A DNA stretch of 64,000 nucleotides from Euzebya pacifica. Its GTDB lineage: Bacteria > Actinomycetota > Nitriliruptoria > Euzebyales > Euzebyaceae. Positions within the stretch are counted from its first letter, which is position 1. Every line of letters starts with the position of its first letter. The position numbers and the translations under genes are program-made. The notes beneath the pieces are model-generated. The model made no database searches. It saw only the letters and a list, made by a program, of their open reading frames with translations, and had not been told where the DNA came from. The stretch lies in the NCBI RefSeq assembly GCF_003344865.1, contig NZ_CP031165.1:4531910-4595909 (forward strand). The letters run 5' to 3'. Shown in pieces: positions 8,760 to 64,000 of the stretch.

Positions 8760-10040
8760 TCAGGCGGCGACGGCCATGGACCCGAAGAACTCGCGGCCCC
8801 ACTCGATGGCGTCGAGGTACAGGCCGATCAGCTCGGTCTCGGGCCAGCCGTGCTGTTCGGCGATCGAGGACACCGTGTCCCACTGGCCGCGTTCGTAGGC
8901 CACCACGATCTCCAGCAGGTCCTGCAGCGCACCGGGTTCGCCCTGGAGGGCGTCGGTCACCTCGGTGTCCATGGAGACGTCGGCGAGTGCGTCGGCCATC
9001 GAGCGGCCGAGCATGACGTCGATCAGGCTGAACATCCCGAGGCTGAAGCACGCATGCGGGGTTGCGACCCCCAGGCGGGTGCCGAGGGACTCACAGAACC
9101 GGGCCCTGGTGGCGCACACGAGCGCCAGCTCGCGGGGGCCGGGGCTGGACAGGCCGCTGACCGTGGCCACGCTCACCCAGCGACGAACGTTCTCGATGCC
9201 CAGCATCACGAGGGCGCGCTCGAGGGACTCGATGCGTCCCCGGAACCCGAAGTGGGCGCTGTTGACGAACCGCAGCAGCTTGAACGACAGGGCGACGTCG
9301 GTCTTGATGACCCGGGCGACCTGGGCGAAGTCCATGTCCTCGGCGTAGGCCAGCCGTTGCAGCTGCAGGTAGGCGACCTTGTGGCCCGGCAGCTCCCGTC
9401 CCTCGACCACCCGGGCCGAGGAGAAGAAGAATCCCTGCACGTAGTCAACGCCGGCGGACACGACATGGTCGCGGTCGTCGGCGGTGTCGACGCTGGTGGC
9501 GATCACCGCGCAGCCGTGCTCCCGGATCGGCGCCAGGGTCGTCTCGATCTCGTCGGTGTCCTTGCCCCGGAGGTCGACCTTGACGAAGTCGGCGATGGCG
9601 AGCAGCGGCTGGCAGGACGCAGTCCAGAAGAAGTCGGCCAGCGCGATGCGGTAGCCGCGCCGACGGTAGTCCTGACAGCGGGCCAGGACGGCGTCGCGGT
9701 TGCGGGACGCCCACACGTCACGGCCGAGCTCGAGGGTCGACTGGTCCGGCGGCATCAGCAGCGGGGTGGAGTCCACGAACTGGGCCAGCGGGAACCGCAC
9801 GAACGCCAGGTGGTCACCGACCACCGTGTCCACGCCGAGGGTCAGGACGCTGTGGCTGACGACCTCGGAGGTGGCCCGGAACTCGTCGACCTCGGTGAAT
9901 GCGCTGAACAGCCCGCCGCTGTCTCGGAACAGCAGCTCGTAGCCCAGCGGGGTGTGCTGGTCATCGGCGGTGAGGATCGGGCGGCGTGCGACCTGGACGG
10001 TGGCCAGGGCGCCGGCACCGAGCTTGAGGGTCTCGGTCAT
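8760..10040 (-). CDS. EAL-like/HDOD signalling protein (YuxH type)
   Basis: A 426-residue two-domain protein. The N-terminal half resembles an EAL cyclic-di-GMP phosphodiesterase but its signature reads YELLFRDS rather than EALLR, and the metal-ligand loop is replaced by ADFFWTASCQP, so catalysis is unlikely. The C-terminal half is an HDOD domain (FKLLRFVNSAHFGFRGRIES, ALVMLGIENVRRWVS, FSLGMFSLIDVMLGR). YuxH-type proteins act in signalling, with partners mostly unknown. The ATG at 10040 has GAGG about 10 nt upstream. It stands between mfd and pth on the same strand with no clear functional link to either. Confidence 0.88.
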   Translation of the reverse strand: MTETLKLGAGALATVQVARRPILTADDQHTPLGYELLFRDSGGLFSAFTEVDEFRATSEVVSHSVLTLGVDTVVGDHLAFVRFPLAQFVDSTPLLMPPDQSTLELGRDVWASRNRDAVLARCQDYRRRGYRIALADFFWTASCQPLLAIADFVKVDLRGKDTDEIETTLAPIREHGCAVIATSVDTADDRDHVVSAGVDYVQGFFFSSARVVEGRELPGHKVAYLQLQRLAYAEDMDFAQVARVIKTDVALSFKLLRFVNSAHFGFRGRIESLERALVMLGIENVRRWVSVATVSGLSSPGPRELALVCATRARFCESLGTRLGVATPHACFSLGMFSLIDVMLGRSMADALADVSMDTEVTDALQGEPGALQDLLEIVVAYERGQWDTVSSIAEQHGWPETELIGLYLDAIEWGREFFGSMAVAA

Positions 10041-10115
10041 GGCGTGAGTCCTCATCGGCGTGTGGGGCCGAGGACGAAGCCAAGCGACGAAGTTTTTCGC
10101 GCCTGCGTTCCTGGC

Positions 10116-10697
10116 TCAGGCCGTGTGGACCCGGTTCTGGGTCGCCTCGAGGCCCTCGCTGATGACCTGGACCAGGGCGTCGACGGCGTGCTCGACGGCG
10201 ATGTCGACGACGTCGGCTCGTTCCTTGGTGGGGAACTTCTGCAGGACGTACTTGGCGCCGGGCATGCGACCCGGTGGCCGGCCGATGCCGAACCGCAGCC
10301 GGATGTAGTCCTTGGCCCCCAGGCGCTGGTTGATGTCGCGGATGCCGTTGTGGCCTCCGGAGCCCCCGCGCTTGAGTCGCAGGACCCCGGGCTCGAGGTC
10401 GAGCTCGTCCTGCACCACGATCAGGCGCTCGGTGGGGACCTTGTAGAACCGCACCAGCTGCTGGACGGGGCCGCCGGAGTTGTTCATGTACCCGAACGGC
10501 ACCGCCAGGGTCACCGGGATGCGGTCGGCACCGGCCTGCACGAACGTGTCGGCGACCAGCGCCTGGGCCTTGTGCGGCTTGAGGTCGACGTGGTGCCGCG
10601 CGGCGGCGGCACGGATGACGTCGGCACCGATGTTGTGTCGGGTGCCGCCGTACTCGGCCTCGGGGTTGGTCAGGCCGACCGCGAGCCAGCGGTCCAT
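10116..10697 (-). CDS. pth: Peptidyl-tRNA hydrolase
   Basis: It recycles tRNA by cleaving peptidyl-tRNA dropped from ribosomes. The 193-residue protein starts MDRWLAVGLTNPEAEYGG, followed by TRHNIGADV with the catalytic His. The second signature LIVVQDELDLEPGVLRLKRG and GGHNGIRDINQRLG are intact. The usual GLGNP reads GLTNP here, keeping the key Asn. The ATG at 10697 is preceded by GAGGAGGAG at ideal spacing; the open frame runs 20 codons further upstream, without family resemblance. It follows the L25 gene by 66 bp, a conserved rplY-pth pairing linking ribosome function and tRNA recycling. Confidence 0.97.
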   Translation of the reverse strand: MDRWLAVGLTNPEAEYGGTRHNIGADVIRAAAARHHVDLKPHKAQALVADTFVQAGADRIPVTLAVPFGYMNNSGGPVQQLVRFYKVPTERLIVVQDELDLEPGVLRLKRGGSGGHNGIRDINQRLGAKDYIRLRFGIGRPPGRMPGAKYVLQKFPTKERADVVDIAVEHAVDALVQVISEGLEATQNRVHTA

Positions 10698-48754: not shown

Positions 48755-49804
48755 ATGCGCGCGATCACCCAGCACACCTACGGCACCACCGACGTCCTCG
48801 CACTCGAGGACGTGCCAATCCCCGACATCGGGGCCACCGACGTCCGCATCAGGGTCCACGCCGCCGGCGTCGACCGTGGCGTGTGGCACTTGATGACGGG
48901 ACTGCCCTACCCGGCCCGGCTGGCTTTCGGGCTGCGCCGGCCACGCAACCCCATCCTCGGCATGGACGTCGCGGGCATCGTCGAGGCCGTCGGCCACGAC
49001 GTGACCCGGTTCACCGAGGGCGACGCGGTCTTCGGCGTCGGGCAGGGCACGTGGGCCGACCTCGTCGCGATCGACCAGGACCGACTCGCCGCCGTTCCGC
49101 GAGGCGTCGACATGCTGGCCGCCGGCGCCCTCGCCGTGTCCGGCTCGACCGCCATGCAGGCGGTGGAGGACCACGGATGCGTCCAGCCCGGCGACCGCGT
49201 GCTGGTGCTCGGCGCCAGCGGCGGCGTGGGCAGCTACGCGGTGCAGGTCGCCCGTGCCCACGACGCCCACGTCACCGGCACGGCCAGCACCGACAAGCTC
49301 GACCTCGTCCGCGACCTCGGTGCCCACCAGGTCATCGACCACCGCAAGGACGACCCGTTGGCCCAGCACGACCGCTTCGACGTCATCATCGACACCGGCG
49401 GCAACCGCCGTCTGCGCGACCTGCGACACGCGCTGCGCCCCGCCGGCACCCTCGTCATCGTCGGAGGAGAGGGCGGGGGCCGGCTGATCGGCGGTCTGGA
49501 CCGCCAGCTCCGGGCCGTGCTGACCTCGGCGTTCACCCGCCAGCGGCTGGTGACCTTCGTCGCCACAGAGGACGCCGACCACCTGGAACGGCTCGCCGAC
49601 CTCGTCGAGGCCGGCCACGTGACGCCACGGGTCGGGCAGTCGTTTCCGCTGGAGGAGGCGGCGTCGGCCATGCGCCTCTTGGAGGCTGGCCGCGGCAAGC
49701 TCGTGCTCGCCGTCGCAGGCGCGCAGCCCGAGACCAGCACCCCGGCCAAGCACAACACTGCGGAGCGCCCCCGGCAGGAATCGAACGTGCGACGCACGGT
49801 TTAG
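48755..49804 (+). CDS. NAD(P)-dependent alcohol dehydrogenase / quinone reductase-like
   Basis: A 349-residue medium-chain reductase: MRAITQHTYGTTDVLALEDV, MDVAGIVEAVGHDVTRF, and the Rossmann motif VLVLGASGGVGSYAVQVAR. The catalytic zinc ligands of ADHs are not clear, so it is probably a zinc-free quinone-reductase-like enzyme. The last 13 codons and the stop run antisense through the tRNA-Arg 3' fragment (49766-49809), so its end touches the island att site. Confidence 0.9.
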   Translation: MRAITQHTYGTTDVLALEDVPIPDIGATDVRIRVHAAGVDRGVWHLMTGLPYPARLAFGLRRPRNPILGMDVAGIVEAVGHDVTRFTEGDAVFGVGQGTWADLVAIDQDRLAAVPRGVDMLAAGALAVSGSTAMQAVEDHGCVQPGDRVLVLGASGGVGSYAVQVARAHDAHVTGTASTDKLDLVRDLGAHQVIDHRKDDPLAQHDRFDVIIDTGGNRRLRDLRHALRPAGTLVIVGGEGGGRLIGGLDRQLRAVLTSAFTRQRLVTFVATEDADHLERLADLVEAGHVTPRVGQSFPLEEAASAMRLLEAGRGKLVLAVAGAQPETSTPAKHNTAERPRQESNVRRTV

Positions 49805-49809
49805 GAAAC
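49766..49809 (-). other. att site: 3' half of tRNA-Arg(CCU) gene
   Basis: Read on the minus strand, this is the 3' half of a tRNA-Arg(CCT): anticodon loop TTTCCTAAAC, a variable loop, a T-arm GCACG-TTCGATT-CCTGC with one C-C mismatch, acceptor CGGGGGC and discriminator G. No 5' half is present on its right, where an integrase gene begins 123 bp later. It is therefore the displaced 3' fragment left by an integrative element; the intact tRNA-Arg should lie to the right of the window. Confidence 0.85.
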
Positions 49810-49931
49810 AGGCCGGGAATTTCGCCGAAACCGCAGGTCAGCGGCCTCTTTGACCCAGAGGCCGCGATCCTGCCCAATTTTCCGCCCAATTTGACCTGAC
49901 ACAGCGGGCACGGTCGCTTCGACGAACCGAG

Positions 49932-51236
49932 GTGATGAGCGTGCCACACCCGTACCAGGACGTGAAGGTTTTTGGCCTGCAGAAGCGCAAGGGGGAGGTG
50001 GGGCGCAACAGGCCGTGGATCGTCAGGTGGATGATCGACGGCCGGCATCGGTCCCGGTCGTTCCGCACACGGTCGGAGGCCGACCGGTACCGGGGGTTGT
50101 TGCAGCGGGCCGTCCACGACGGCGAGCAGTTCGCGCCGTCGACGGGCGAGCCCGACGGGTGGGTGCTCCCGCTCGCCGGCATGGGTGTGCACGAGTGGGC
50201 ACGTCGTTGGCTGGCGGAGGAGTGGCCGGAGTGGGCACCGAGGACGCGGTCGTCGATGGTTGAGTCGCTCGCCCGATTCGTCACGCTCGCGGTGCGACCC
50301 GGTGCCCGGACCCCGGCCGACCTGCGCCGCTACCTGCTCACCTCGTTGCGCGCGGATTCCCAGGAACGTGACAGCCGACTCGAGGGCTGGCTCGGCACCA
50401 ACGCCCTCACCCTGGCCCAGCTCGACAAGCCCGTGTTGCTCGAGGTGGAACGACGAATGCGGCTGCGCCTCGACGGCAGCGGCCCGTTGTCATCGAATAC
50501 CGCCACGAGGTTCAGGGTCGCCGCCCACGCCTGTGTCCTGGCCGCGGTTGAGGTGGGCGCCATCGAGCAGGACCCATGGCCGGTCCGCAGCCGGGCGCGG
50601 GCGCGCCGGAAAGCCAACCGGGGGCTCACGACCGCGCAGCGGATCCGCTCACTCCCCTCCCCCGAGACGATGACCCGGGCGATCGAGGCGATCATCACCG
50701 ACCACCCGGCGAGCGGCTGCTACCACGCCATGACCGCAACGGCCTACTACGCAGGGCTGCGACCGTCGGAGGTCGTGATGCTCCGGGTCGGGGTCCTCCA
50801 GCTGCCCACCAACGGCTGGGGGTCCCTCGACGTCGTCGAGGCCGACATCGGCAACGGTCAGCCCGGCGAACCCAAGACCGGCCCGCGGCTGGTGCCCATC
50901 CCACCCCAGCTCGTCGCGATCCTCGCGGCCTGGGTAGAACAGCTCCCCGACCGTGACCCGAGGCGGCTGCTGTTCCGCACCAGCGAGGGCAACCGCCCCA
51001 ACCAGGGCAACTGGCGCCGCGCCTGGCACCGCGCGCTGGCAGCCGTCGGCGAGCAGCCGATCCGGATCTACGACTGTCGCCACGCCGCAGCCACCACATG
51101 GCTCGGCGCGGGCGTTCCCCTGGGCGAGTGCGCCCGCCGCCTCGGCCACAGCGTCGACACCCTCGTCTCCAACTACGTCGGTGCCCTCGCGGGCGACCAG
51201 CGACTGGCCAACGAGCGCATCAGCAGCGTGCTTTGA
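49932..51236 (+). CDS. Tyrosine recombinase (phage/island integrase)
   Basis: A 434-residue site-specific recombinase. An AP2-like arm-binding head (RPWIVRWMIDGRHRSRSFRT) and a core-binding SAM-like region precede the catalytic domain with AGLRPSEVVMLR (first Arg), DCRHAAATTWLGAG (second Arg box, first His replaced), RLGHSVDT (His) and the nucleophile Tyr in LVSNYVGAL. It sits directly next to the tRNA-Arg att fragment and most likely catalysed the island's integration. The start could be GTG 49932, ATG 49935 or GTG 49941. Confidence 0.93.
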   Translation: MMSVPHPYQDVKVFGLQKRKGEVGRNRPWIVRWMIDGRHRSRSFRTRSEADRYRGLLQRAVHDGEQFAPSTGEPDGWVLPLAGMGVHEWARRWLAEEWPEWAPRTRSSMVESLARFVTLAVRPGARTPADLRRYLLTSLRADSQERDSRLEGWLGTNALTLAQLDKPVLLEVERRMRLRLDGSGPLSSNTATRFRVAAHACVLAAVEVGAIEQDPWPVRSRARARRKANRGLTTAQRIRSLPSPETMTRAIEAIITDHPASGCYHAMTATAYYAGLRPSEVVMLRVGVLQLPTNGWGSLDVVEADIGNGQPGEPKTGPRLVPIPPQLVAILAAWVEQLPDRDPRRLLFRTSEGNRPNQGNWRRAWHRALAAVGEQPIRIYDCRHAAATTWLGAGVPLGECARRLGHSVDTLVSNYVGALAGDQRLANERISSVL

Positions 51237-51467
51237 CATTCCCATGATGCACGGTGGGGCGGCTGGTTCTCGCCGGGGTTCCCGAAGGTCGCCTGTCTCA
51301 CCGGCATTGGATGATCCTCAAGGATCGGCCCACGACATGAGCCCGCGCTGGCACGCAACGAATCAGGCCACGCTGTACTTCTACTTCACCGACCTCACGT
51401 CCGACCCCATGCCGCTGTCCGTGGGAAGGGATGGTCCTGAACCGTGGCCCTAGATGATTTCAGTGTG

Positions 51468-52463
51468 CTAGCTGTGCTTTGCCGGGACGTTGTTGACAAG
51501 TGACATGGGTGTGCCTCCGTTGTGAGCGTTGTGGCCGCGGTGGTGGTTGTAGTCGTGGACGAAGCGGGCGAGGTCGTCCAGGCGTGCCTGGTTTGAGGGG
51601 TAGTCGCGTGCGTAAGCCCACTCCTCTTTGAGGGTTCGGTTGAATCGCTCGACCTTGCCGTTGGTCTGGGGTCGGTAGGGCCGTGTCCGCTTGTGGGTGG
51701 CTTCGGCCTCGGCGAGGGCGTCGGCAAAGGTGTGGGAGCGGTAGCAGGACCCGTTGTCGGTCATCACTCGCTGGGTGTGGATGCCGTGCTCGGCGAACCA
51801 GGCGATCGCACGGGTGATGAAGGCGGCAGCGGTCTCCTTGCGTTCGTCGCGGTGGGCCTCGGCGTAGGCAATCCGTGAGCGGTCGTCCACGGCGATGTGC
51901 AGGTAGTCATAGCCCAACCGCGGCCGGCCATCGCGGGGCCCGTCGGGCCGTTGATCACGCAGTCGCGGGGTGCCGGTGGCTCTGCCGTGGATCCGCCAGC
52001 CGCCCCCGTCGGGGATACGACCCTGCTTCTTGACATCGACGTGGATCAGCTCGCCGGGTTCGTCTCGTTGGTAGCGCACCACGGTTCGGGTGGCCCGGTC
52101 GATGTCGGCCAGCCGCGGCTGATGGTTGCGGCGCAGGACCCGGTTGACTGTCGATGGGGCCTCTCCCAGCGCCCAGCCGATGCGATGTGGGCCCTGCAGG
52201 GTCTGCCGGCGGCACCGGACGATGGCGATCTCGCGGCCCACATCTATGCGGTTGGCCAGGTGGTGGGGACGCGAGGACCGATCGGCAAGGCCGGCATCGC
52301 CCTCCTCCCGGAAGCGGCGCACCCACTTGTAGACGGTGGCCCGCGAGACCCCCATCGCTTCGGCAGCTCTGGCGGCTGGCCAACCCAGTTCCTCGACCCG
52401 ATGGACCAGCAACCGGCGGCCCTCAATGGTCAAACGGGCTCGACGATGACTACGATGCTGCAC
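51468..52463 (-). CDS. IS481-family DDE transposase
   Basis: A 331-residue transposase. The N-terminal HTH is WPAARAAEAMGVSRATVYKW, and the integrase-core triad is Asp143 (IHVDVKKQG), Asp236 (MTDNGSC) and Glu272 (KVERFN) with the DDE spacing of 35. The last two bases of the final Ser codon and the TAG stop lie outside the IS, in the GCTAGC target duplication, so the host site supplies the stop codon. Confidence 0.95.
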   Translation of the reverse strand: MQHRSHRRARLTIEGRRLLVHRVEELGWPAARAAEAMGVSRATVYKWVRRFREEGDAGLADRSSRPHHLANRIDVGREIAIVRCRRQTLQGPHRIGWALGEAPSTVNRVLRRNHQPRLADIDRATRTVVRYQRDEPGELIHVDVKKQGRIPDGGGWRIHGRATGTPRLRDQRPDGPRDGRPRLGYDYLHIAVDDRSRIAYAEAHRDERKETAAAFITRAIAWFAEHGIHTQRVMTDNGSCYRSHTFADALAEAEATHKRTRPYRPQTNGKVERFNRTLKEEWAYARDYPSNQARLDDLARFVHDYNHHRGHNAHNGGTPMSLVNNVPAKHS

Positions 52464-52542
52464 GAGGGCCTCCCTGGCCGTTACTTAGAACCTGACTGTT
52501 GGGGAGGCTCTCGTGCTGTCTACAACCTGTCGGGGAACTACA
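51473..52542. mobile_element. IS481-family insertion sequence with 6-bp target duplication
   Basis: A 1070-bp element carrying one transposase gene. Its ends are inverted repeats, starting TGTGCTTTGCC at left and TGTAGTTCCCC at right (reverse complement), with about 20 of 28 bases shared, and continuing through GTTGTTGACA / GTTGTAGACA. The flanks 51467-51472 and 52543-52548 are both GCTAGC, matching the NCTAGN duplication known for IS481. The element looks intact and recently moved. Confidence 0.92.
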
Positions 52543-52548
52543 GCTAGC

Positions 52549-53095
52549 GGGGTCCGGCCGTCCCCCCACGTCCGCGATGACTTAGGTGATCGACTGCCCT
52601 CCGTCCCCATCCGCGAGGACGGGCCGACAGCCTGACCTGCGAATTTCTGCCGAACGACGACCGGGCAGATCGGGGGCGAAGCACGTCCGATCTGAGGAAT
52701 GCGCTAGGGATGAGAGATCCACGTCAGACACTCGTATGAGACGAGGTTGCCGCCCTCGGTGACCCCCCTCAAGAGTCTCGCGCCGCTCAGCGAAGCGGAA
52801 GATGTGGTCCGGAGCGGGACGGGATTGCGGCCGATCTAAAGGGTGAGCCACTCTCTGTCGGGTGAGAAAGGTGCCCGCTGCGCAGGACCTGGAGTCAACC
52901 TCCGATGCACATCGCCTATACCAATCTCGGCTCACTGTTCGCAGCCGGTTCGACGCCAAGACTGGAGATGGGCTCGCCTTCGACTCCAGTGGACTTGGAC
53001 AGGACCTCACACATGCATACGCGGCCATGAACGACCCGGCGGGATGTGGACTCATACGCCCGCGCTCGAACCCTGCACCACGTCCAGCTGTGAAC
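52549..53095. other. 547-bp stretch with no recognisable gene
   Basis: Between the IS481 target duplication and the helicase gene there are only short or overlapping frames on either strand, none with codon use or motifs suggesting a real gene. The base composition is lower in GC than the chromosome. One pair of inverted octamers (CTGGAGTC near 52889 and GACTCCAG near 52983) is present. It may be a transcript end or an eroded island segment. Confidence 0.5.
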
Positions 53096-54727
53096 TCACT
53101 CAAGCTTTGTGGGTTCCGGCAGTATCGCAAGGAAACGGCTGCCCTGGCGGACACGCAATACTCCGTTTGTGTTTGGGACGCGACGAGCATGAGTCACCAC
53201 AACGGCCTCGCGTGCTCGTGAGAGCATGACTAGAAGTGTACGGAGTTCTTGGGTGAGAGCCGCCGAAGTACCTTCCTTGAGCGCTGGAAAAGAAGGCAGA
53301 ATGTCCTCCTCCAAACCCACAACCACCACTCTGTCGAACTGCTGTCCTTTGCCCTTGTGACTGCTTAGGACGTGCAGTCCAGGTCCGACTGGGGCGGACC
53401 CTGTCGACGCCACGCGGATATTGGCTATGTCGTGGTGGAGCGTCTCGTAGTCTAGGCCGCGCTCCTCAAAACTCCGCAATGCCCGATCGAGTTCGTCAGC
53501 GGTCTCGAAGTCGAGGGCGTCGACAAGGCGAACTGCGGCGTTGCGGAGGTCGCGCAAGGCGTCCGACGTATCCGAGTTCACGCTGACAAGTGACGACCGA
53601 AGAATTCGGGCTACGTCAGGGGAGAAGGCCGGTTCATCCCAAACTTCGAGAGGCATCTGCCGACCCACCGCAATGTCCACGATCGAACGGAGGCGGGCAT
53701 TACTGCGCGCGATAACCGCCACAGATGACCCATCCCCCCGCTCAAGCCACTCTGCGGCCATGTCTACAACCGCATCGGCTTCTTCTACAACGTCCTCGAA
53801 GGCCTGCATGGCGAACAACTCTGACGGCCACTGATCTGGCGCCGCCGCTTGTATGTTCGGTCCACCGAGAGCCTTACTCACGGCGCTCACCACTCTGAGA
53901 ACCTCGGGACTAGATCGCCAGGATGTGACGAGGTCAATAGTTGAAGCAGGCAGGACACGAATCCTTTCCAACACCGTCTCGGGTTGCGCACCGGCCCAGT
54001 CGTAGATTGCTTGATGGATGTCCCCTGCAAAGACTTGTCGCCGTTGGCCCACGGCAGCAGCCATTTCGTACTGCTCAACTGTCAAGTCCTGAACTTCGTC
54101 AACCACAAGATACGGATAGCGCAACCGCAGGACGTCCCTGACAGCCGGCACCTGAACTGCCCGACAACCCAAACGCATGATGTCGTCGAAATCGATTTCG
54201 CCAGCATCGGCTAAACGCATCTGGTAATCACGTGCGACAGGACTATGGTCGTACATTAGCTCGCGGAGTTCATCTTCCTCAACTACTAGCCGTTTGATAG
54301 CAAGACCAGCGTCGTGAAGGATGCTCCGGACGTCCCAATAGCTAATGCGGTGTGCTTGGGCGAGATCCCTATGGAGGTCGTCCAACCATCCGGTCCGAGG
54401 ACCATCAGGGGGCTTGTGAAGCCCTAGGTGATCCCAATGTTGTCGAGCGAGGGCGAATCCGAGGGCGTGGAAATTTCGAACTTCCACGCGTTGGTGCGTG
54501 ACGGGACCGACACGCACAGCGATTCGCTGCCGCAGATTCGCTCGGGCCTTCTTCGAGAAGGTCAAGGCAAGGATATGCTCTCCTTGCTGCAGAAGGCGTC
54601 GTTCGATCACGGCTCCGCAGAACCTGGCGATCTCCTCGGTCTTTCCACATCCTGGAGGCGCCAAGAGAAGGGCGGCGTTGGCCGACCCATCCGCGATTAG
54701 CTCGTCAATCCATCCCGTCGCCATCAC
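53096..54727 (-). CDS. UvrD-like helicase, Gabija GajB-like
   Basis: A 543-residue SF1A helicase. Motifs in order: I APPGCGKT (residues 23-30), Ia LTFSKKARANLRQRI, II VVDEVQD (208-214), III FAGDIHQAIYDWAGA, IV/V VLSSHKGKGQQFDRVVVVGL and VI LVMLSRAREAVVVTHAR. It is shorter than housekeeping UvrD/PcrA (about 700). It follows an OLD-type nuclease gene with a 4-bp overlap (54724-54727), the gajA-gajB arrangement of Gabija phage defence, where the helicase works with the nuclease. The GC content is visibly lower than in neighbouring core genes. Confidence 0.88.
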   Translation of the reverse strand: MMATGWIDELIADGSANAALLLAPPGCGKTEEIARFCGAVIERRLLQQGEHILALTFSKKARANLRQRIAVRVGPVTHQRVEVRNFHALGFALARQHWDHLGLHKPPDGPRTGWLDDLHRDLAQAHRISYWDVRSILHDAGLAIKRLVVEEDELRELMYDHSPVARDYQMRLADAGEIDFDDIMRLGCRAVQVPAVRDVLRLRYPYLVVDEVQDLTVEQYEMAAAVGQRRQVFAGDIHQAIYDWAGAQPETVLERIRVLPASTIDLVTSWRSSPEVLRVVSAVSKALGGPNIQAAAPDQWPSELFAMQAFEDVVEEADAVVDMAAEWLERGDGSSVAVIARSNARLRSIVDIAVGRQMPLEVWDEPAFSPDVARILRSSLVSVNSDTSDALRDLRNAAVRLVDALDFETADELDRALRSFEERGLDYETLHHDIANIRVASTGSAPVGPGLHVLSSHKGKGQQFDRVVVVGLEEDILPSFPALKEGTSAALTQELRTLLVMLSRAREAVVVTHARRVPNTNGVLRVRQGSRFLAILPEPTKLE

Positions 54728-56334
54728 ACAAGTCGCCCGAGAAGATCACGGATCGCGGAGGCAACCGGGACTATGGCGTTCGCTTGGCGCTGGTCCAGTT
54801 TGCCGGCGAGTGCTAGGGCGGAATCGATCTTCCCCCCGGCCCGGGCAGCTCGCGCAACGTGCTCCTCCGTTAGGTCCGCGGGATCGGCGACCCCTGCCCG
54901 GCCCAAGAGCGTCTCCATCTTGACCACGCCCGCGTCGGAAAGAAGACGAGCGAACTCCCCAGCGCCCAGTGCCTTCGAGCACTCGTCCTCCAGATCCTCA
55001 CGACAGATGTATACGTGAGCCGCCTGGAGGTCATCCGGGGCGACCCTCAGATAACCGGCGACGGCAGCCGATTCGTCGCCGTCTGCGATAGTGACCATGG
55101 GAACATCGAAACCGCTCGGGCCCAAGAGTGTGTAAAGCAACTGGAAGTTGGGGTAGCCACCCACGGGGTAAACACTTATTGATTCACGATCAAGGTCGAT
55201 GCCCAGGGCCCGGCACACCTCACGCACGGCGACGACGTCGCTCGGGCCTTCCACAGCGATAAGTCCGCGACTCGTAAGGGGTTCGAGCACCGAGGGAAGC
55301 CATCGCTGGACTGCGTGCCGGGGAGAAATCGTATCGCCATGGAACTGGCGCAGATTTCCATCGCCGGCCATAACGACTACCTCGGCCGGGTCAAACTGCG
55401 CCAACACGGTCGTTGAGTGTGTCGCGATGAGGGCCTGAGGCGCCGCTTCACGAAGCGCCTTGGCTAGACGACGCTGGGCCGCCGGGTGCAGGTGCACCTC
55501 GGGCTCGTCGAGCGCGAGTATCGAGAGCGACTGAGGAGCGGCCAACTGCAGGCCAATGGTCGCGAGAGAGCGATAACCATCAGAGTTGTCACGGAACGCA
55601 CTAGGGGACTCTTGACCACGGAGTTTGACTTCGAAGTCCGCGAGTGGATCTTCCTTACGGTCACTGGGCAGGTCGATGTCGACGTCATCCGCTGCGACTG
55701 GCGTGGGGAGGACCCTGTCGAGCGACTCAGCGACGTCCTTCTTGAGGGTCCTTACGCCGGAAGCGTCCTGGACAACTTGGTGGACTTGATCGATCGCCTT
55801 CCTGATTGCCACGCCGTCGTCCCCTAGTTCGACACCACGAAGCAATTGCCTGATGACACTGCCGCCTCCAGAACCAAGTGCAATATGCATCTTTCTGTCG
55901 GCTCCAAGATGCACGAACGGCACCGACGCCAAACGCAGGTTGCTTACTGGCACCTCGGCACCGTCGCGCCCCAGCTTCCTGTCAATCTTCAGTTCCTTGA
56001 CGCGTTCGTCGAACTCCGCGACGATATTGAGTTGCAGGGTCGACTCCCCCGCGGCGTTCAGTTCCAGTTCGTGAGCGAATTCTCCCCTTTCCCCTTCGGA
56101 GAGACTCGAGAATGTCAATCGAGCCGTCAGGGCACGTGACCGATCGCGCAGAGATTCAGGCGTGATTTCACGATACAATAGAGCACGACTTCCGGTTAGA
56201 GCCAGCCCAATAAGGTTCAACAGTGATGATTTACCGCAGGCGTTGGCGCCGACGAGAACCATGTGGCCACTCAGATCGAAGGCAACGTCTGGGATCCGCG
56301 AATGGTTGAGTACTTCAAGTGATTGGAGTTGCAT
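54724..56334 (-). CDS. OLD-family ATPase/Toprim nuclease, Gabija GajA-like
   Basis: A 536-residue protein. The N-terminal ABC-type ATPase has Walker A GANACGKS (29-36), the SDGYRSL signature, Walker B SILALDEPE (271-279) and His-loop ATHS. The C-terminal Toprim domain shows Glu362/Asp366 in VEGPSDV and Asp418/Asp420 in IADGD, the metal-binding set of OLD nucleases. With the adjacent UvrD-like helicase this is the Gabija pair (class 2 OLD), in which GajA cuts DNA when nucleotides are depleted. An annotation as recombination protein is less likely. Lower GC suggests transfer. Confidence 0.88.
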   Translation of the reverse strand: MQLQSLEVLNHSRIPDVAFDLSGHMVLVGANACGKSSLLNLIGLALTGSRALLYREITPESLRDRSRALTARLTFSSLSEGERGEFAHELELNAAGESTLQLNIVAEFDERVKELKIDRKLGRDGAEVPVSNLRLASVPFVHLGADRKMHIALGSGGGSVIRQLLRGVELGDDGVAIRKAIDQVHQVVQDASGVRTLKKDVAESLDRVLPTPVAADDVDIDLPSDRKEDPLADFEVKLRGQESPSAFRDNSDGYRSLATIGLQLAAPQSLSILALDEPEVHLHPAAQRRLAKALREAAPQALIATHSTTVLAQFDPAEVVVMAGDGNLRQFHGDTISPRHAVQRWLPSVLEPLTSRGLIAVEGPSDVVAVREVCRALGIDLDRESISVYPVGGYPNFQLLYTLLGPSGFDVPMVTIADGDESAAVAGYLRVAPDDLQAAHVYICREDLEDECSKALGAGEFARLLSDAGVVKMETLLGRAGVADPADLTEEHVARAARAGGKIDSALALAGKLDQRQANAIVPVASAIRDLLGRLV

Positions 56335-56648
56335 CAGAGTCCGTTGGTGTCAAGTGTGCCGGCGGTCTTGTCTGCGTCCCATTCCACCGAAGCATCCTGG
56401 CGTTGGTTAGGACCGCACAAGCCGGACATGTCCCCGGAACGGCTCCGTGCCTCCCACACTGACCTCATGTACCCAAAGCAGGAGGGCGGTGGTGACGCGA
56501 GACAACTACAGCACTCTGGTCAAGCCAGATCAAGCCGAGTGTCAAAAGTGCCATCACTTGAGCGGCTGCTTCACTCGAGGCGGTCAAACTGACCCCCAGT
56601 GTTGGCTTGCCAGGACTTTGTTGACACGTTGACATGAGTCGGAACGTG
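56335..56648. other. Intergenic stretch with an IS481-like end
   Basis: This 314-bp gap between gajA and the decayed transposase has no gene. At 56600-56640 it holds TGTTGGCTTGCCAGGAC followed by GTTGACACGTTGACATGAG, closely resembling the left end of the intact IS481 element (GCTTTGCCGGGACG, GTTGTTGACA). It is the terminal repeat of the degenerate transposase element that follows. The rest shows no structure I can explain. Confidence 0.55.
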
Positions 56649-57300
56649 TCAGGCCGGGTGAAACAGGTCTGAGTTGGTTTCAGGTGTGGGTGGGTTGATC
56701 CAGCTGGTTGTCGGGATGGTGGGTGCCTGGGGTCGGGCGTGGAAGCGTTCGGGGTGTTGGGCGTAGGCGTCGTCGAGGACGCGTTGCCGGGCCTTTCGGA
56801 TGTGGTGGTGGCGTCCGGTGTGGACGTCGGCGGGGGTGTGCAGGCCGATGCCGGAGTGCCGGTGGATGGTGTTGTAGTGGGTGAGGAAGTCGTCGGTGAA
56901 CCGGCGGGCGTGCCCGAGGTCGGTGAAGCGGCCGGGGAAGGTGGGGGCGTACTTGAGGGTCTTGGACTGCGCTTCGGAGTAGGGGTTGGCGTTGGAGACG
57001 TGGGGTCGGCTGTGGGAGCGGGTGATGCCGAGGTCGGCCAGGAGCTGGGCGACGGTCCGGCTGGTCATGGAGGTGCCGCGGTCGGCGTGGATGGTCAGCT
57101 GGTCGCGGCCGATGTGCTCGGCTTAGGTGCAGGCGTCGAGCAGGTCGCGGGCCAGCGCGGCCGATTGGCGGGTGGCCACGGTCCAGCCGACGGCGTAGCG
57201 GGAGTAGACGTCGATGACGACGTATAGCTGGTACCAGGTCCACTTCCACGGGCCACGCAGCAAGATGGGCGTCCCAGGACCACACCTGGTTGGGGGCGCA
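56649..57300 (-). pseudogene. Truncated, frameshifted IS transposase (rve core)
   Basis: The C-terminal half of an integrase-core transposase can be read as MTSRTVAQLLADLGITRSHS, NANPYSEAQSKTLKYA and FLTHYNTIHRHSGIGLHTPA. Upstream the homology continues as GPWKWTWYQLYVVIDVYSRY but in another frame, with an in-frame TAA at 57123-57125 and a frameshift next to WSWD. The catalytic Asp of RGTSM is kept. It is an inactive remnant of an IS3/IS481-superfamily element. Confidence 0.85.
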
Positions 57301-57314
57301 CCCGCGTACGCTTC

Positions 57315-58065
57315 ATGAACTTGGACATCAGCGTCGAGCGGTTCCGTGCGCTCGCCCGGTCATCGCCGTGGCGCTGGTCGAGGCTGCGCTACGTGCGAGA
57401 GCGCGACCCGTCTGGCAGCGATCCAGACCCCGTCGGTGTCTGGATCCGGCGCCCGAAGCTCGCCCGTGTGGAACGGCTGGACGGCGCGCTGCTGCATGTG
57501 CACCGTGAGCAACCCCGGACCGTGACGCCGCTCAGCCGCCGCGGCGACGCACTACCGGTGAGGATTCCGGAACTCTCGAGCATCGACGTCGCGCTCGATG
57601 AGGACGGGTTGGTTCGTCAGCGTCCGGGTCGGTGGGAGTGCGATACCGACACCGCGATGCTCGGCAGCTACTACGAGGTGGCCGTGCGCGATCCGGTCGA
57701 GCCTCGCCGATGGTCACCACGGCGCCGCGGTCGCAACGATCGATGCGCTGCGCGTCGTGGAGCATCGGGGGCGCGAGAGCTGGGAGGCTGTGCTTCGACC
57801 CACGGCCGCCTACGACCCGCGGTGTCCGTGCTGCGCGTTGTTGCTGTCGGAGACGCTCGAGGACTCGGGCCTCGGGCTTCGTGCACCGGATCCGAGCTTC
57901 GTCTACCCCGACGCCAACCGCGTCCGACTCGATGTCGCCCTCGGGGTGTGTGTCTTCACCGAGCAGTTCGGGGGCACACGTGCCGGGTGGGGCCACGACA
58001 TCAGGATCGAAGCTGTTGATGAACCGATGCCGGAGGAGCTGTTCCGGGACGCGCCACGGCCTTAG
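57315..58065 (+). pseudogene. Frameshifted hypothetical protein gene
   Basis: Frame 0 from ATG 57315 gives MNLDISVERFRALARSSPWR onward to YYEVAVRDPVE, then continues in frame +1 as LADGHHGAAVATIDALRVVE and on to the stop at 58065. The switch occurs at about 57702, where one extra base (GAG-C-CTC) separates the frames. The joined protein would be about 250 residues with a Cys-rich stretch (DPRCPCCALLL). I know no named family for it. It may be a true frameshift mutation or a sequencing error. Confidence 0.6.
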
Positions 58066-58288
58066 ATCCGGGGGATTCCTTGAAGCTGACTCCATCACCG
58101 TGGTTACGCGCGTCGTCTCAGCAGTTCTCTGCCGCGCATAACGACGTTCCGATATCCGGGGATACACCATGGCACGGCCCCACTTGCTCTGTTGATGGTT
58201 CCTTACGCGGGTGAGGTGGAATTGGCAACTTGGGGCCCACCGCGACGCCGGTGGGAGGCCCTCCGATGGGCTTGATAGGCTGCCCGAC

Positions 58289-59110
58289 ATGGATGGGTGG
58301 GACTCTGGGGAGAACGACTCGATCCGGGTTGTTGGAGTGCATGGCATAGGCCAGCAACGACTTGATCCGGGCGATCTTGACGTCCAGTGGCGGACCAACC
58401 TCACACGTGGGCTTAGCGATGCCGCGCCGCCTGGGGTGCTGCCAGCGGTCGACTTCCGCCTCGCGTATTTCGCGGACGTATTCGCACCTTCGACGAAGGG
58501 ATGGGAGGACGCTTTGGAGGACGTCGACGTCGACTTCCTGCTTGAGGTGGACGACGAGGTGGTGACACCTGGTTGGTCGGTGCCGCCGACGAAGGGTTTC
58601 CCAGCGTTGCCCAAGTCGCTGAACCGTTTGGCGGCCTGGCTGGATGACCGCTTCGGTGCCGGTAGCGCGATGCTGTGCATTGCCAGCTTGCGTCAAGTCC
58701 GTCGGTACCTAGCTGATGACGAGCTCGCGGCCACAGTCCACCAACGCGTCGCCGACCGGATCGATGGGCCGGTCGCGATCGTGGCCCACTCGCTGGGGAC
58801 CGTGGTGGCACATCAGCTTCTCGCGGCGTGCAAGGTCGAGGGAGTGGGTCGGTTGGTGACCTTGGGGTCGCCTCTGGCGTTGTCGACTGTGCGGAAGAGG
58901 CTGCGGTATCCGCTGGACGCTCCGTTGGAGGCGGGTGTATGGCTGAACGTCTTTGATCCGCGCGACGTGGTTGCCTGCGCGGGAGGACTGAAGGGCCACG
59001 TCCGCAACGCGGGGTTCGACGAGAAGCCCGTGAGAAACGGCGTGAACGCCCACAGCGCGGGCGCCTACCTGCGTTCGGCCACGGTGGCCAACGCGCTGCG
59101 GCAGGGGTAG
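58289..59110 (+). CDS. Lipase-like alpha/beta hydrolase next to a caspase-STAND gene
   Basis: A 273-residue serine hydrolase. The oxyanion-type motif is VVGVHGIGQQ (14-23), the nucleophile Ser168 lies in IVAHSLGTVVAHQLLA, the acid is probably Asp226 (VFDPRDVV) and the base His255 (NAHSAGAYL). No signal peptide is seen, so it would act in the cytoplasm, for example on lipids of the inner leaflet. Its stop is 3 bp before the GTG of the caspase/WD40 gene, so the two are one operon. I chose ATG 58289 over an in-frame start at 58211. The role as effector is an inference from this pairing. Confidence 0.82.
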   Translation: MDGWDSGENDSIRVVGVHGIGQQRLDPGDLDVQWRTNLTRGLSDAAPPGVLPAVDFRLAYFADVFAPSTKGWEDALEDVDVDFLLEVDDEVVTPGWSVPPTKGFPALPKSLNRLAAWLDDRFGAGSAMLCIASLRQVRRYLADDELAATVHQRVADRIDGPVAIVAHSLGTVVAHQLLAACKVEGVGRLVTLGSPLALSTVRKRLRYPLDAPLEAGVWLNVFDPRDVVACAGGLKGHVRNAGFDEKPVRNGVNAHSAGAYLRSATVANALRQG

Positions 59111-59113
59111 GCC

Positions 59114-62100
59114 GTGGTTTCACGCTTTGTGGCCATCCTGCACAGCGGGAAGGGATTGGCCGTTGCGCCGATCGAGGGACTGGCGGAGGAGGTGTCGGTC
59201 CTTGATAGGTGGCTCGTTGATGGCGGTGGTTTCACCAAGGAGTTGGAGGAGCTCCGCGAGGATCCGTCTCGAGCCCAGGTTGAAGACAAGGTCAGGCGAC
59301 TTGAGGTGGCGGGTGACGATGTCCTTGTCGTTTATGTCAGCTGCCACGGGGAGTCGGCGGACTCTTCAGGGCACCGCTTGATCCTGACGCTCGCGCCGAG
59401 CGACAACTTGGCGAACACAGACGACGGTTCAGCGATACCGCTCCGGTCGGAGCTGAACACGGTCGATCTCATCGGCTGGCTCGCGAAGCTTGATGAGGAC
59501 CTGCGTGAGGTGCTCGTGATCATCGACACATGCAATGCGGGGAACGCGGACCCTGGCCTGCGGTCTGAGCTTGTGCGTGATGCGCGGTTTAGGCAATGGA
59601 TCGTCTTGTTGGGGAGCGACTGGGATCAACCCGCGAGGGCGGGTGACTTCACGTCCGTGCTCGACGAGGTCATCGCTGAGCTGTCGGCGAATGAGAAGCA
59701 CGGCGCGGACAACCAGCCGTTCTTCGAGGGTCGGAGCTTCGTGAACGCGTTGTGGGACCGCAATGACAACTTCCGCGGAAAGGTCAGCTTGCCGGCAGAG
59801 AACAGCGGAGTTCGCCGCTATCTGCCAAACCCGAACTACCGGCCGCAGCGGGTTGAACCCGCGGGGCGGCCCGAGCTGGCAGGGCTCGGCACCACGAGGG
59901 AAGAGATCGACGCGCACTGGGGACCGCGAGGTGAACACGTCGTCGGCCGCACCACGACGTTGCGGGCGCTCGTGGACTATTTGCAGACCGGTCGATTTGG
60001 CGGGGAGGCGACAGGGATGCTCGTGGTTACGGGGCCCGCTGGGAGCGGGAAGTCCGCGATCCTGTCGCGTTTGGTCCTCGCCAGCGACCCCGGGTTTGCC
60101 GGGCGGTACCCGGACCTGGTCACCGCGCTCGGGCAGGTACCCGCGGGGTTGATCGATGTAGCCGTGCACGCCCAGCAACGCACCACACTCGAGGTCGCCC
60201 TGCAGCTCGCGGAACATCTCAGCATCGAGGGAGACCTCACCAGCGTGGACGGCATCGTGAACACCATCCACTCCGCCGACCTCGGTTCCAGGTGCATCGT
60301 GGTGGACGCGATCGATGAGAGCCGTGATCCGCTCGCGATGCTGCGAGATCTGCTCCACCCGCTCGCCATGTCTTCGCTGCGGGTCCTGATCGGTGTCCGC
60401 TCGGTCGCCGGTGGTGACCGCCGCCCACGTGATGCGGGTGGGCAATTGGGCGACCAACACCTACTGCAGCTACTCAGCCGATATCCGCTGATCGACGTCA
60501 GCGAAGATCCGAACACGACTGAGGATCTGAGCGCGCTAGCGGTACACCTGCTCGGCGTTCATCCTCAAGCCCGGCATGTGGCTCGGCTGCTCGCATCGCA
60601 GGCCTTCCCGTCGTTCTTGCTGGTGCGCCAGATTGCTGGACAGTTAGCTCGCGACCCAGGCACCGACGTCGACGACGCCAGGATTGCCAGGCTCGTCGAC
60701 GCCGGGGTTGTCGGCGTGCTGGCACGAGACGTGATCAACGTGGTGGGTCACGGCAACGTAGAAGGGCGTCAGAAGATGACGACGTTGCTGCGTGTCGCGG
60801 CGCTCTCCAACGGCAGGGGTATCCCGTGGCAGGATCTGTGGACACAGCTGGCGGGCGCGATCGACCCGACCGGCCTCACCTACACCGATGGCGACGTGCA
60901 GCGCTTGGCAACGAGCACGCTGAGAGCGCATCTGCGAGTCGGGCTGGAGCACGACGTAACCGTCTATCGTCCCAGCCATGAGAAGATCCGCGAGGTCCTG
61001 ACCGACGAACCCGACAAGGTTGCGGCCGGGGAGACAGGCGGCGAACCAGAGGTCCGCTGGCCAGACCCCGCCGAGGCGCACGCGGGGCTTCTCCAAGAGG
61101 GGCTGCGACTCCTGCGCGAGGGCGCGTCCGCGGGTGACGCCTACCTCCGGGAGAACCTGCCTCTGCACGCGGCCGACGCCGACATGACGCAGGCCCTACT
61201 TGATGCAGTGGATGTGCTCCCTGTCATCCATCGAACCCTGCTGCCTGTCGCGGCACAGGCGCGCCGCCTCAGCGGCCCAGGCCAGCGGGTCGCACGCGCC
61301 CTGGCCCAGATCGGCCACGGCTGGACGAACGAGGCTCCAATCGGCAACGCCGCATCACTCCGCCTGGCAGCCGCATCGACTGCCGCTCCATCGCCGATGG
61401 CCTGGACTCGCACACCGCAACGCCCCGTCCGCACCCTCCCAGTGGGGTCTCATGCTACCGCAGTCGTCGCGGTGCCTGATGTGGATGGTGGCCACCTGCT
61501 GGCCTCCGCAGGGTTCGGGGGGACTGTTCAGCTGTGGGACCCTACGAGCGGTGAGGTGGTTGGCCGCCCGATCGACCATGGCGGCCGGGTGTCGGCGCTG
61601 GCGGTGGTGCCTGATGGTGCGGGGGGCCGCCTGCTGGCCTCCGCCGGGGACGGGGGTGTCAGGCTTTGGGACCCTACGAGCGGTGAGGTCGTTGGCCGCC
61701 CGATCGACCAGGGCGGCCGGGTGTCCGCGTTGGCGGTGGTGCCTGATGGTGCGGGGGGCCACCTCCTGGCCTCCGCCGGGGACGCCGGGACTGTCAAGCT
61801 GTGGGACCCCACCAGCCGCAAGGCGGTCGGCCGCCCGATCGCCCACGGCACCCCGGTGTCCGCGTTGGCGGTGGTGGCTGATGGTGCGGGTCGCCACCTG
61901 CTGGCCTCCGCCGGGGACGCCGGGACTGTCAAGCTGTGGGACCTCACCAGCCGCAAGGCGGTCGGCCGCCCGATCGCCCACGGCGGCCGGGTGTCGGCGC
62001 TGGCGGTGGTGCCTGATGGTGCGGGTGGCCACCTGCTGGCCTCCGCCGGGAACGACAGGACTGTCAAGCTGTGGGACCCCACGAGCGGCGTGGCGGTTGG

Positions 62101-63352
62101 CCGCCCGATCGACCACGGCGGCCGGGTGTCGGCGCTGGCGGTGGTGGCTGATCGTGCGGGTGGCCACCTGCTGGCCTCCGCCGGGAACGAGGGGACTGTC
62201 AAGCTGTGGGACCCCACGAGCGGTCGGGTGGTTGGCCGCCCGATCGCCCATGGCACCCCGGTGTCCGCGCTGGGGGTGGTGGCTGATGGTGCGGGTGGCC
62301 ACCTGCTGGCCTCCGCCGGGAACGGCGGGACTGTCAAGCTGTGGGACCTCACCAGCGGTTGGGCGGTCGGCCGCCCGATCGCCCATGGCACCCCGGTGTC
62401 CGCGCTGGGGGTGGTGCCTGATCGTGCGGGTGGCCACCTGCTGGCCTCCGCCGGGAACGGCGGGACTGTCAAGCTGTGGCACCCCACCATCGGCGAGGCG
62501 GTCGGCCGCCCGATCGACCATGGTGGCCGGCTGTACGCGCTGGCGGTGGTGCCTGATCGTGCGGGTGGCCACCTGCTGGCCTCCGCCGGGTACGACGGGA
62601 CTGTCAAGCTGTGGCACCCCACCATCGGCGAGGCGGTCGGCCGCCCGATCGACCATGGCGGCTGCGTGAATGCGCTTACGGTGGTGCCTGATGGTGCGGA
62701 GGGCCACCTGCTGGCCTCCGCCGGGGCGGGGGGTGTCAGGCTTTGGGACCTCACCAGCCGCAAGGCGGTCGGCCGCCCGATCGCCCACGGCGACTACGTG
62801 AATGCGCTGACGGTGGTGCCTGATGGTGCGGGTGGCCACCTCCTGGCCTCCGCAGGGTTCGGCAGGACTGTCAAGCTGTGGGACCCCACGAGCGGTGAGG
62901 CGGTTGGCCGCCCGATCGAGCATGGTGGCTGGGTGGACGTGCTGGCGGTGGTGGCTGATGGTGCGGGTCGCCATCTGCTGGCCTCCGCCGGGTCCGATGG
63001 GACTGTCAAGCTGTGGGACCCCACGAGCGGTGAGTCGGTCGGCCGCCCGATCGACCATGGCGGCCGGGTGTCGGCGCTGGCGGTGGTGGCTGATGGCGCG
63101 GGTGGCCATCTGCTGGCCTCCGCCGGGTCTGGCGGGACCGTCAGGCTGTGGGACCCCACCAGCGGCGCAGCCGTCTGCTCGCTCACAACGACAGCCGCCA
63201 TCTCCTCGCTGGCCATCTGGCGATTCGACAGGGAGTGCTGGGTCGCCATCAGTTGGGTCGACGGCGGCATCGGCGCGCTCCGACTTGACGATCTCCTGAC
63301 GGGCTCGGTTGGACCAAGCGTCGGGAGAAGCCAACGCAATGCAGTCCGCTGA
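59114..63352 (+). CDS. Caspase - STAND NTPase - 14-blade WD40 protein
   Basis: A 1412-residue protein with three parts. Residues 1-240 are a caspase-like (C14) protease with His78 in VSCHGES and Cys140 in IIDTCNAGN at the dyad positions. Residues 270-620 form a STAND-type NTPase: entry VGRTTTLRALVDYL, Walker A GPAGSGKS (307-314), Walker B CIVVDAIDES (394-403) and LIGVRS. A helical linker reaches about 775. Residues 778-1395 are 13 nearly identical WD40 repeats of 44-45 residues plus one degenerate repeat, 14 blades in all (two seven-bladed propellers). This is the sensor-switch-effector layout of NLR-like immune proteins. Start GTG 59114, 3 bp after the hydrolase stop. Confidence 0.88.
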   Translation: MVSRFVAILHSGKGLAVAPIEGLAEEVSVLDRWLVDGGGFTKELEELREDPSRAQVEDKVRRLEVAGDDVLVVYVSCHGESADSSGHRLILTLAPSDNLANTDDGSAIPLRSELNTVDLIGWLAKLDEDLREVLVIIDTCNAGNADPGLRSELVRDARFRQWIVLLGSDWDQPARAGDFTSVLDEVIAELSANEKHGADNQPFFEGRSFVNALWDRNDNFRGKVSLPAENSGVRRYLPNPNYRPQRVEPAGRPELAGLGTTREEIDAHWGPRGEHVVGRTTTLRALVDYLQTGRFGGEATGMLVVTGPAGSGKSAILSRLVLASDPGFAGRYPDLVTALGQVPAGLIDVAVHAQQRTTLEVALQLAEHLSIEGDLTSVDGIVNTIHSADLGSRCIVVDAIDESRDPLAMLRDLLHPLAMSSLRVLIGVRSVAGGDRRPRDAGGQLGDQHLLQLLSRYPLIDVSEDPNTTEDLSALAVHLLGVHPQARHVARLLASQAFPSFLLVRQIAGQLARDPGTDVDDARIARLVDAGVVGVLARDVINVVGHGNVEGRQKMTTLLRVAALSNGRGIPWQDLWTQLAGAIDPTGLTYTDGDVQRLATSTLRAHLRVGLEHDVTVYRPSHEKIREVLTDEPDKVAAGETGGEPEVRWPDPAEAHAGLLQEGLRLLREGASAGDAYLRENLPLHAADADMTQALLDAVDVLPVIHRTLLPVAAQARRLSGPGQRVARALAQIGHGWTNEAPIGNAASLRLAAASTAAPSPMAWTRTPQRPVRTLPVGSHATAVVAVPDVDGGHLLASAGFGGTVQLWDPTSGEVVGRPIDHGGRVSALAVVPDGAGGRLLASAGDGGVRLWDPTSGEVVGRPIDQGGRVSALAVVPDGAGGHLLASAGDAGTVKLWDPTSRKAVGRPIAHGTPVSALAVVADGAGRHLLASAGDAGTVKLWDLTSRKAVGRPIAHGGRVSALAVVPDGAGGHLLASAGNDRTVKLWDPTSGVAVGRPIDHGGRVSALAVVADRAGGHLLASAGNEGTVKLWDPTSGRVVGRPIAHGTPVSALGVVADGAGGHLLASAGNGGTVKLWDLTSGWAVGRPIAHGTPVSALGVVPDRAGGHLLASAGNGGTVKLWHPTIGEAVGRPIDHGGRLYALAVVPDRAGGHLLASAGYDGTVKLWHPTIGEAVGRPIDHGGCVNALTVVPDGAEGHLLASAGAGGVRLWDLTSRKAVGRPIAHGDYVNALTVVPDGAGGHLLASAGFGRTVKLWDPTSGEAVGRPIEHGGWVDVLAVVADGAGRHLLASAGSDGTVKLWDPTSGESVGRPIDHGGRVSALAVVADGAGGHLLASAGSGGTVRLWDPTSGAAVCSLTTTAAISSLAIWRFDRECWVAISWVDGGIGALRLDDLLTGSVGPSVGRSQRNAVR
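61450..63295 (+). repeat. 14-unit, 132-135-bp tandem repeat encoding WD40 blades
   Basis: The core GGCCACCTGCTGGCCTCCGC recurs about every 135 bp, and the flanking TGTGGGACC and GGCCGCCCGATCG are also shared. Units 2 and 10 are one codon shorter. The near-identity extends to synonymous positions, so the array has expanded or been homogenised recently. Differences cluster in a few codons: repeat positions 1, 3, 6, 22-24, 34-36, 42 and 45. Confidence 0.93.
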
Positions 63353-63411
63353 CCTCGCGCCCGACTAGACCTTCCCGGCTACGGGTTGGGGCGACAGATC
63401 GACCCTGCTGA

Positions 63412-64000
63412 TCAGGTACTTGTTGAGCGTATCTGGCGGTCGTGGTGGGCGGTGAGGACGTGCTGCGGGGTGCGGCCGGCCATGTAGTCGCCATGGTTGC
63501 GTCGTCGGGTGTTGTACTGGTTCAGCCAGGCCTGCAACGCGTTGTTGAGCTGGGCGACATCGGTGATGCGTTGCCGGTGGAAGATCGGCCGGTAGAACTC
63601 CTGCAGCGCGGCGCCCTGGAACCGTTCGCACACGGCGTTGTGGTTGGGTGAGCGTGGCGGGATGCGGACATGCTCGATGCCGAGGTCGGCCAGCTCGTCG
63701 GTGAAGTTGTGGCCGATGAACTCCGGCCTGTCGTCGCTCAGCACGCCCGACATGTCGATGTCGATCTCGGCGAGCCGGTCGAGCACGGTGGGATGAACGT
63801 GAGGGTCATGGTGGAGTTGACCCGGCCGATGACGAGGTCAGCGACGGCCCAGAGGGTGTAGGTGTCGATCGCGGTCAGCTGGTAGACCGGCATGATGCCT
63901 TCAGCTTGCCGACGTAGAAGGCGTCCATGGCGACGAGATCGCCCGGCCCGCCTGCGAAGTGACAGAACCCGATCGGGTCGACCTCGGGGGCGATCAGCCC
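63412..64000 (-). pseudogene. Degenerate integrase-core transposase, cut by window edge
   Basis: The C-terminal part reads DRLAEIDIDMSGVLSDDRPE, IEHVRIPPRSPNHNAVCERF and RNHGDYMAGRTPQHVL, an integrase-core (IS481/IS3-type) transposase with the Asp (SDDRPE) and Glu (CERF) of the triad. Further upstream the homologous stretch VYQLTAIDTYTLWAVADLVI is in a different frame, separated by a 1-nt shift near 63790, so the gene is broken. It may continue beyond 64,000. It closes the segment that carries the caspase operon. Confidence 0.78.

What the first reader, a model, noticed from the sequence alone, without database searches (positions are those of the whole stretch)
53096..56334. Gabija-like defence pair
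An OLD-type ATPase with an intact Toprim Glu/Asp set and a short UvrD-like helicase overlap by 4 bp in the gajA-gajB order. Gabija is an established anti-phage system. Compared with the usual length, GajA is slightly short and GajB slightly long, so it may be a divergent branch.
Basis: partly seen in the sequence, partly recalled or inferred. Interest (0 to 1): 0.6.

Follow-up and report, generated by a model that had tools for sequence, protein, structure and literature searches.

The report
Divergent actinobacterial Gabija defence pair
Two adjacent genes encode a DNA-cutting enzyme and a helicase that form a distant but recognisable branch of the known bacterial anti-phage system Gabija, carried into this chromosome on an 18.5-kb mobile element inserted in a tRNA gene.

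Summary
gajA (54724-56334, -) is an intact 536-aa OLD ATPase-Toprim protein; gajB (53096-54727, -) is an overlapping 543-aa short UvrD-like helicase. Each matches one PADLOC Gabija subfamily over nearly its full length (about 346 bits). Nine further actinobacterial pairs (27-39% identical) keep the gajA-gajB order, and well-supported nodes agree between the gene trees. Nuclease and ATPase residues tested in characterised GajA align with identical or acidic residues here (K35, H306, E362, D366, D418, D420, D447, E449, K502).

Lengths are explained: GajA has a short Toprim alpha3-beta4 connection but keeps the class-2 C-terminal helical domain; GajB has a UvrD-sized 1B but a reduced 2B. The GajA model matches solved GajA and class-1 OLD about equally; the GajB model matches UvrD/PcrA best, and common descent of all GajB helicases is neither shown nor rejected.

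The pair is low-GC cargo of a mobilisable element in tRNA-Arg(CCT). Two congeners have the site empty; a third carries the same ends with other cargo. PADLOC already calls this branch Gabija; I found no characterised member in the papers read. Anti-phage function is inferred. Ordinary to moderately interesting.

The parts
54724..56334 (-). gajA: OLD-type ABC ATPase with dimerization-type insert, Toprim nuclease and C-terminal helical domain, 536 aa
   Evidence: PADLOC PDLC00075 345.6 bits over 1-530 of 536; Pfam AAA_21, AAA_15, OLD-like_TOPRIM; AF2 pLDDT 81, GajA and TsOLD as best folds
53096..54727 (-). gajB: short UvrD-like SF1A helicase, 543 aa (GTG start) or 542 aa (ATG at 54724)
   Evidence: PADLOC PDLC00121 346.2 bits over 11-537; UvrD-helicase and UvrD_C; AF2 pLDDT 81
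54724..54727 (-). gajA stop / gajB start overlap (GTGA; alternative TGATG)
   Evidence: sequence
56227..56250 (-). GajA Walker A, GANACGKS, K35
   Evidence: invariant G29, N31, G34, K35 in ten sequences
55249..55251 (-). GajA Toprim glutamate E362 (= E379 of B. cereus GajA)
   Evidence: alignments
55075..55083 (-). GajA Toprim DxD, D418 and D420 (= D432, D434)
   Evidence: D420 is S or Q in two relatives
54988..54996 (-). GajA metal-B motif DLE, D447 and E449 (= D511, E513)
54829..54831 (-). GajA catalytic lysine K502 (= K541; BpOLD K562)
   Evidence: invariant in ten sequences; aligns with canonical lysines
54638..54652 (-). GajB Walker A GCGKT
   Evidence: invariant
54086..54100 (-). GajB DExQD box (DEVQD)
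49788..49809 (.). left attachment repeat, 22-bp exact copy of part of tRNA-Arg(CCT); partner copy lies 4.3 kb beyond the window end inside the intact tRNA
49932..51236 (+). tyrosine integrase of the carrying element
   Evidence: Pfam Phage_integrase; 1.5-kb left end 95% identical in a congener's element
51468..52463 (-). IS481-type transposase downstream of gajB
   Evidence: Pfam
56649..57068 (-). truncated transposase (rve_3) upstream of gajA
   Evidence: Pfam

Best explanation
This is a divergent, intact Gabija-type anti-phage pair. GajA most likely oligomerises through its ABC ATPase/dimerization region and cuts DNA with a two-metal Toprim site. GajB, a short SF1A helicase, most likely binds it, loads on DNA ends or single-stranded DNA, and controls cutting through ATP. 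The expected outcome is damage to, or failed circularisation of, injected linear phage DNA that lacks host end-processing (RecBCD, AddAB or AdnAB type). Shown here: gene order, full-length profile match, residue conservation, predicted folds, a co-inherited two-gene unit, and carriage on a tRNA-integrated element. Inferred from characterised Gabija systems: complex formation, ATP control, substrate choice and phage protection.
For: PADLOC full-length hits. Nine syntenic pairs with agreement between the best-supported nodes of the two gene trees. Active-site set aligned to canonical GajA, with K502 at the position of K541 (residues tested in PMC8136825 and PMC10822852). AF2 model matches B. cereus GajA and TsOLD. 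The stretch from motif III to motif V of GajB is 220 residues, against 222-266 in other measurable Gabija pairs outside this branch and 311 in UvrD. GC 60% and GC3 0.61-0.65 against about 0.9 for most chromosomal genes in the window. Mobile element with empty sites in congeners. In several other pairs the neighbourhood holds restriction-modification genes.
Against: By sequence, GajA is no closer to B. cereus GajA than to class-1 TsOLD. GajB is closer to UvrD/PcrA than to B. cereus GajB in sequence and fold, and a joint GajB clade is neither supported nor rejected (p-AU 0.27). Interface residues mapped in B. cereus (GajA K94, R97, D135, R139) are not conserved here. No functional data.
Confidence: 0.8

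Rival explanations
1. A separate OLD-helicase system: a UvrD-like helicase was recruited next to an OLD nuclease independently in Actinobacteria, so it resembles Gabija in parts but not in assembly or trigger.
For: Helicase closer to UvrD/PcrA than to B. cereus GajB; deep unresolved helicase tree; short alpha3-beta4 connection in Toprim and unconserved interface residues.
Against: Same gene order and same reduced 2B stretch as other GajB; GajA keeps the class-2 C-terminal helical domain and lysine; a common helicase clade is not rejected.
Confidence: 0.13
2. The pair is a decaying passenger of the element, no longer expressed or active.
For: IS481 transposase on one side and a transposase remnant on the other; no sigma-70-like promoter found by a simple scan.
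Against: Both frames fully open, all catalytic motifs intact; 314 bp free upstream of gajA; the scan does not cover all actinobacterial promoters.
Confidence: 0.07

Closest known systems
Gabija of Bacillus cereus VD045 (GajA 578 aa, GajB 494 aa; PDB 8SM3, 8JQB)
   Same: Gene order, ABC ATPase plus Toprim, equivalents of K35, H320, E379, D432, D434, D511, E513 and K541, DExQD helicase with reduced 2B
   Different: Walker B is D-E here, E-E in canonical GajA relatives; Toprim DxD to metal-B spacing 27 instead of 77; GajB 1B about 40 residues longer; mapped interface residues not conserved
PADLOC GajA subfamily PDLC00075 and GajB subfamily PDLC00121
   Same: Full-length match of both proteins at about 346 bits
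   Different: Nothing known to differ; the window pair and L100 form their own sub-branch (37-40% identical to each other)
Class 1 OLD nuclease of Thermus scotoductus (PDB 6P74)
   Same: Best single-sequence hit in the PDB; no Insert-3 helix; D at the E383 position (D381 in TsOLD, D366 here)
Class 2 OLD of Burkholderia pseudomallei (PDB 6NK8)
   Same: C-terminal helical domain; metal-B glutamate to lysine spacing 54 there and 53 here
   Different: Shorter alpha3-beta4 connection here (DxD to metal-B spacing 27 against 49 residues)

Membership tests
Gabija | GajA: OLD ABC ATPase plus Toprim | tested here: met
Gabija | GajB: UvrD/PcrA/Rep-like helicase directly downstream | tested here: met
   conserved in nine relatives
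Gabija | Toprim catalytic set and ABC Walker A, Walker B and H-loop intact | tested here: met
Gabija | GajB helicase shorter than UvrD through a reduced 2B | tested here: met
   motif III-V 220 residues against 311 in UvrD
Gabija | GajA and GajB descend from the same ancestors as B. cereus GajA and GajB | tested here: inconclusive
   GajA groups with paired OLDs apart from one group of lone OLDs, but TsOLD falls among the paired ones; GajB deep nodes unresolved, AU p 0.27
Gabija | 4:4 GajA-GajB complex | not testable with these tools
   interface residues not conserved at sequence level; no complex modelling available
Gabija | Anti-phage activity needing both genes | not testable with these tools
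   needs bench test
Class 2 OLD nucleases | C-terminal helical domain with catalytic lysine | tested here: met
   87 residues after E449, helices in AF2, K502 invariant
Class 2 OLD nucleases | Insert-3 helix between Toprim alpha3 and beta4 | tested here: not met
   27-residue spacing in all ten members, no helix there in the AF2 model; several other paired OLDs also seem to lack it, so it does not delimit the Gabija set as PADLOC lists it
Class 1 OLD nucleases | Lone gene without helicase | tested here: not met
   paired in all ten loci

The most novel reading that the evidence does not exclude
An actinobacterial OLD-helicase defence lineage that assembled independently of Bacillus-type Gabija, with a different complex and trigger, and travels as interchangeable cargo of tRNA-Arg elements.
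Probability: 0.13. Interest if true: 0.5.

Novelty: new member of a known kind. Interest (0 to 1): 0.3.

Why it matters
Most Gabija biochemistry read here comes from one Bacillus system, with recent genetics from Pseudomonas. This branch keeps the catalytic set but differs in the Toprim connection, the GajB 1B domain and the mapped interfaces, so testing it would show which parts of the Gabija model are general. The carrying element is a small example of an integrative element whose cargo differs between species of one genus.

Tried and rejected
Type I restriction partnership: HsdR lies near the pair in L009, L010, L094 and L100, and hsdM near it in L012, but the host genome has no HSDR_N match at all and other relatives lack it, so it is treated as shared defence-island company. 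Phage origin: no full-length relative among phage records, and a helicase scan of IMG/VR found none. The first two helicase trees with outgroups contained antisense translations of three host loci and were discarded; one search is the corrected one. K541 first seemed missing from a local profile alignment; the multiple alignment with canonical relatives places K502 there. The ORF 52582-53190, which overlaps the 3' end of gajB, has no family match and is taken as spurious. A sigma-70 promoter scan found nothing and is uninformative for this organism.

Full report
Observation. Two minus-strand genes lie at 54724-56334 (536 aa) and 53096-54727 (543 aa), in that order of transcription. The overlap is GTGA if the GTG start is used, or TGATG with the following ATG; the nearest relative, L100, also has an ATG as second codon. 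Both frames are open and complete.

Profiles. The first protein has AAA_21, AAA_15 and OLD-like_TOPRIM; the second UvrD-helicase and UvrD_C. PADLOC gives GajA PDLC00075, E=1.1e-103 over residues 1-530, and GajB PDLC00121, E=7.7e-104 over 11-537. The next GajA model drops to 85 bits and the next GajB model to 167 bits, so this is one narrow subfamily. NCBIfam has no equivalog above cut-off.

Relatives. All have the helicase directly after the nuclease gene. In a sample of 396 genomes of the phylum two had a match above 300 bits, one of them the window genome, and none of the three sampled congeners did: a rare, patchy distribution.

Residues. In ten GajA sequences G34, K35, D276, E277, H306, E362, D366, D418, D447, E449 and K502 are invariant. 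Alignment with Paenibacillus and Lactococcus relatives of B. cereus GajA places these on K35, H320, E379, E383, D432, D511, E513 and K541, the residues shown or proposed to matter in PMC8136825 and PMC10822852. D420, the second Asp of DxD, is intact here but S or Q in two relatives. Single substitution of its counterpart had no visible effect in BpOLD (PMC6755086). Walker B is D-E here, where canonical GajA relatives and TsOLD have E-E.

Architecture. The AF2 model of GajA (pLDDT 81) contains ABC, Toprim and a C-terminal helical region; its best folds are B. cereus GajA (E 9e-21) and TsOLD (1e-20). [quoted passage not shown] This branch has the second but not the first. The spacing from the second Asp of DxD to the metal-B residue is 27 in all ten members, 45 in TsOLD, 49 in BpOLD and 77 in B. 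cereus GajA, while the metal-B glutamate to lysine spacing is 53, close to 54 in BpOLD. This explains the short GajA. The GajB model (pLDDT 81) resembles UvrD, PcrA and Rep most. Walker A to DExQD spans 184 residues (141-144 in relatives of B. cereus GajB, 188 in UvrD), and motif III to V spans 220 (222-266 in other measurable Gabija helicases outside this branch, 311 in UvrD), so 1B is UvrD-sized and 2B is reduced. This explains the long GajB.

Trees. The ten pairs form a clade for GajA (86/86 with one outgroup, 100/99 in the larger set) and for GajB (100/100). Window plus L100 are sisters with high support in all of them, as are Nocardioides plus Kineosporia. Weaker nodes differ between trees. 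Common origin of all GajB helicases is not resolved (p-AU 0.27). Membership by descent of GajB is therefore open; membership by architecture and profile is met.

Carrier. GC falls to 60% over the pair (about 70% around it) and GC3 to 0.61-0.65, where most chromosomal genes in the window are near 0.9. A 22-bp exact repeat at 49788 recurs 18.5 kb downstream inside tRNA-Arg(CCT). A tyrosine integrase follows the left copy; a TrwC-type relaxase precedes the right copy. Two congeners have a single tRNA-Arg(CCT) at the matching site without the repeat pair (L135, L136), read here as empty sites. A third (L137) has a 12.4-kb element with the same left 1.5 kb (95%) and right 3.9 kb (92%) but different cargo. 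The pair is thus cargo of what looks like a mobilisable integrative element; that the element moves today is inference.

Mechanism. Two models exist for Gabija: nucleotide sensing with DNA nicking (PMC8136825, PMC10822852) and action on linear phage DNA lacking RecBCD (preprint PMC12407980). Nothing here decides between them. The intact two-metal site, lysine, ATPase motifs and helicase motifs fit either. Protection of the host is likely but untested.

Verdict. This is a divergent member of a branch that a public defence database already lists as Gabija, with no characterised member found in the papers read here. Interest is modest.

Noticed in passing
49788-64000 and 4.3 kb beyond (about G000:C1:4581697-4600232): 18.5-kb integrative element in tRNA-Arg(CCT) with tyrosine integrase and TrwC relaxase; a congener (L137) carries the same ends at the same tRNA with different cargo, and two others have the site apparently empty.
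   Followed up: yes
59114-63352: 1412-aa protein with caspase-like domain (Peptidase_C14, just over cut-off), STAND-type AAA_16 and a long WD40 array, on the same element; no PADLOC hit. Possible second defence or cell-death gene, preceded by a weak alpha/beta-hydrolase-like gene (58211-59110).
   Followed up: partly
L137:5588-7222 and 7726-10536: Cargo of the congener's element: an AAA_16 ATPase and a DUF4365 protein, both with weak hits to PADLOC candidate or Argonaute-associated models.
   Followed up: partly
L009, L010, L012, L094, L100: Type I restriction-modification genes near the same Gabija branch in five relatives, directly upstream of gajA in L009 and L094.
   Followed up: partly
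L100 and L094, GajA: Second Asp of the Toprim DxD replaced by Ser or Gln in two otherwise intact relatives.
   Followed up: no
51468-52463, 56649-57068, 63412-63786: Several transposase genes or remnants inside the element, flanking its cargo.
   Followed up: no
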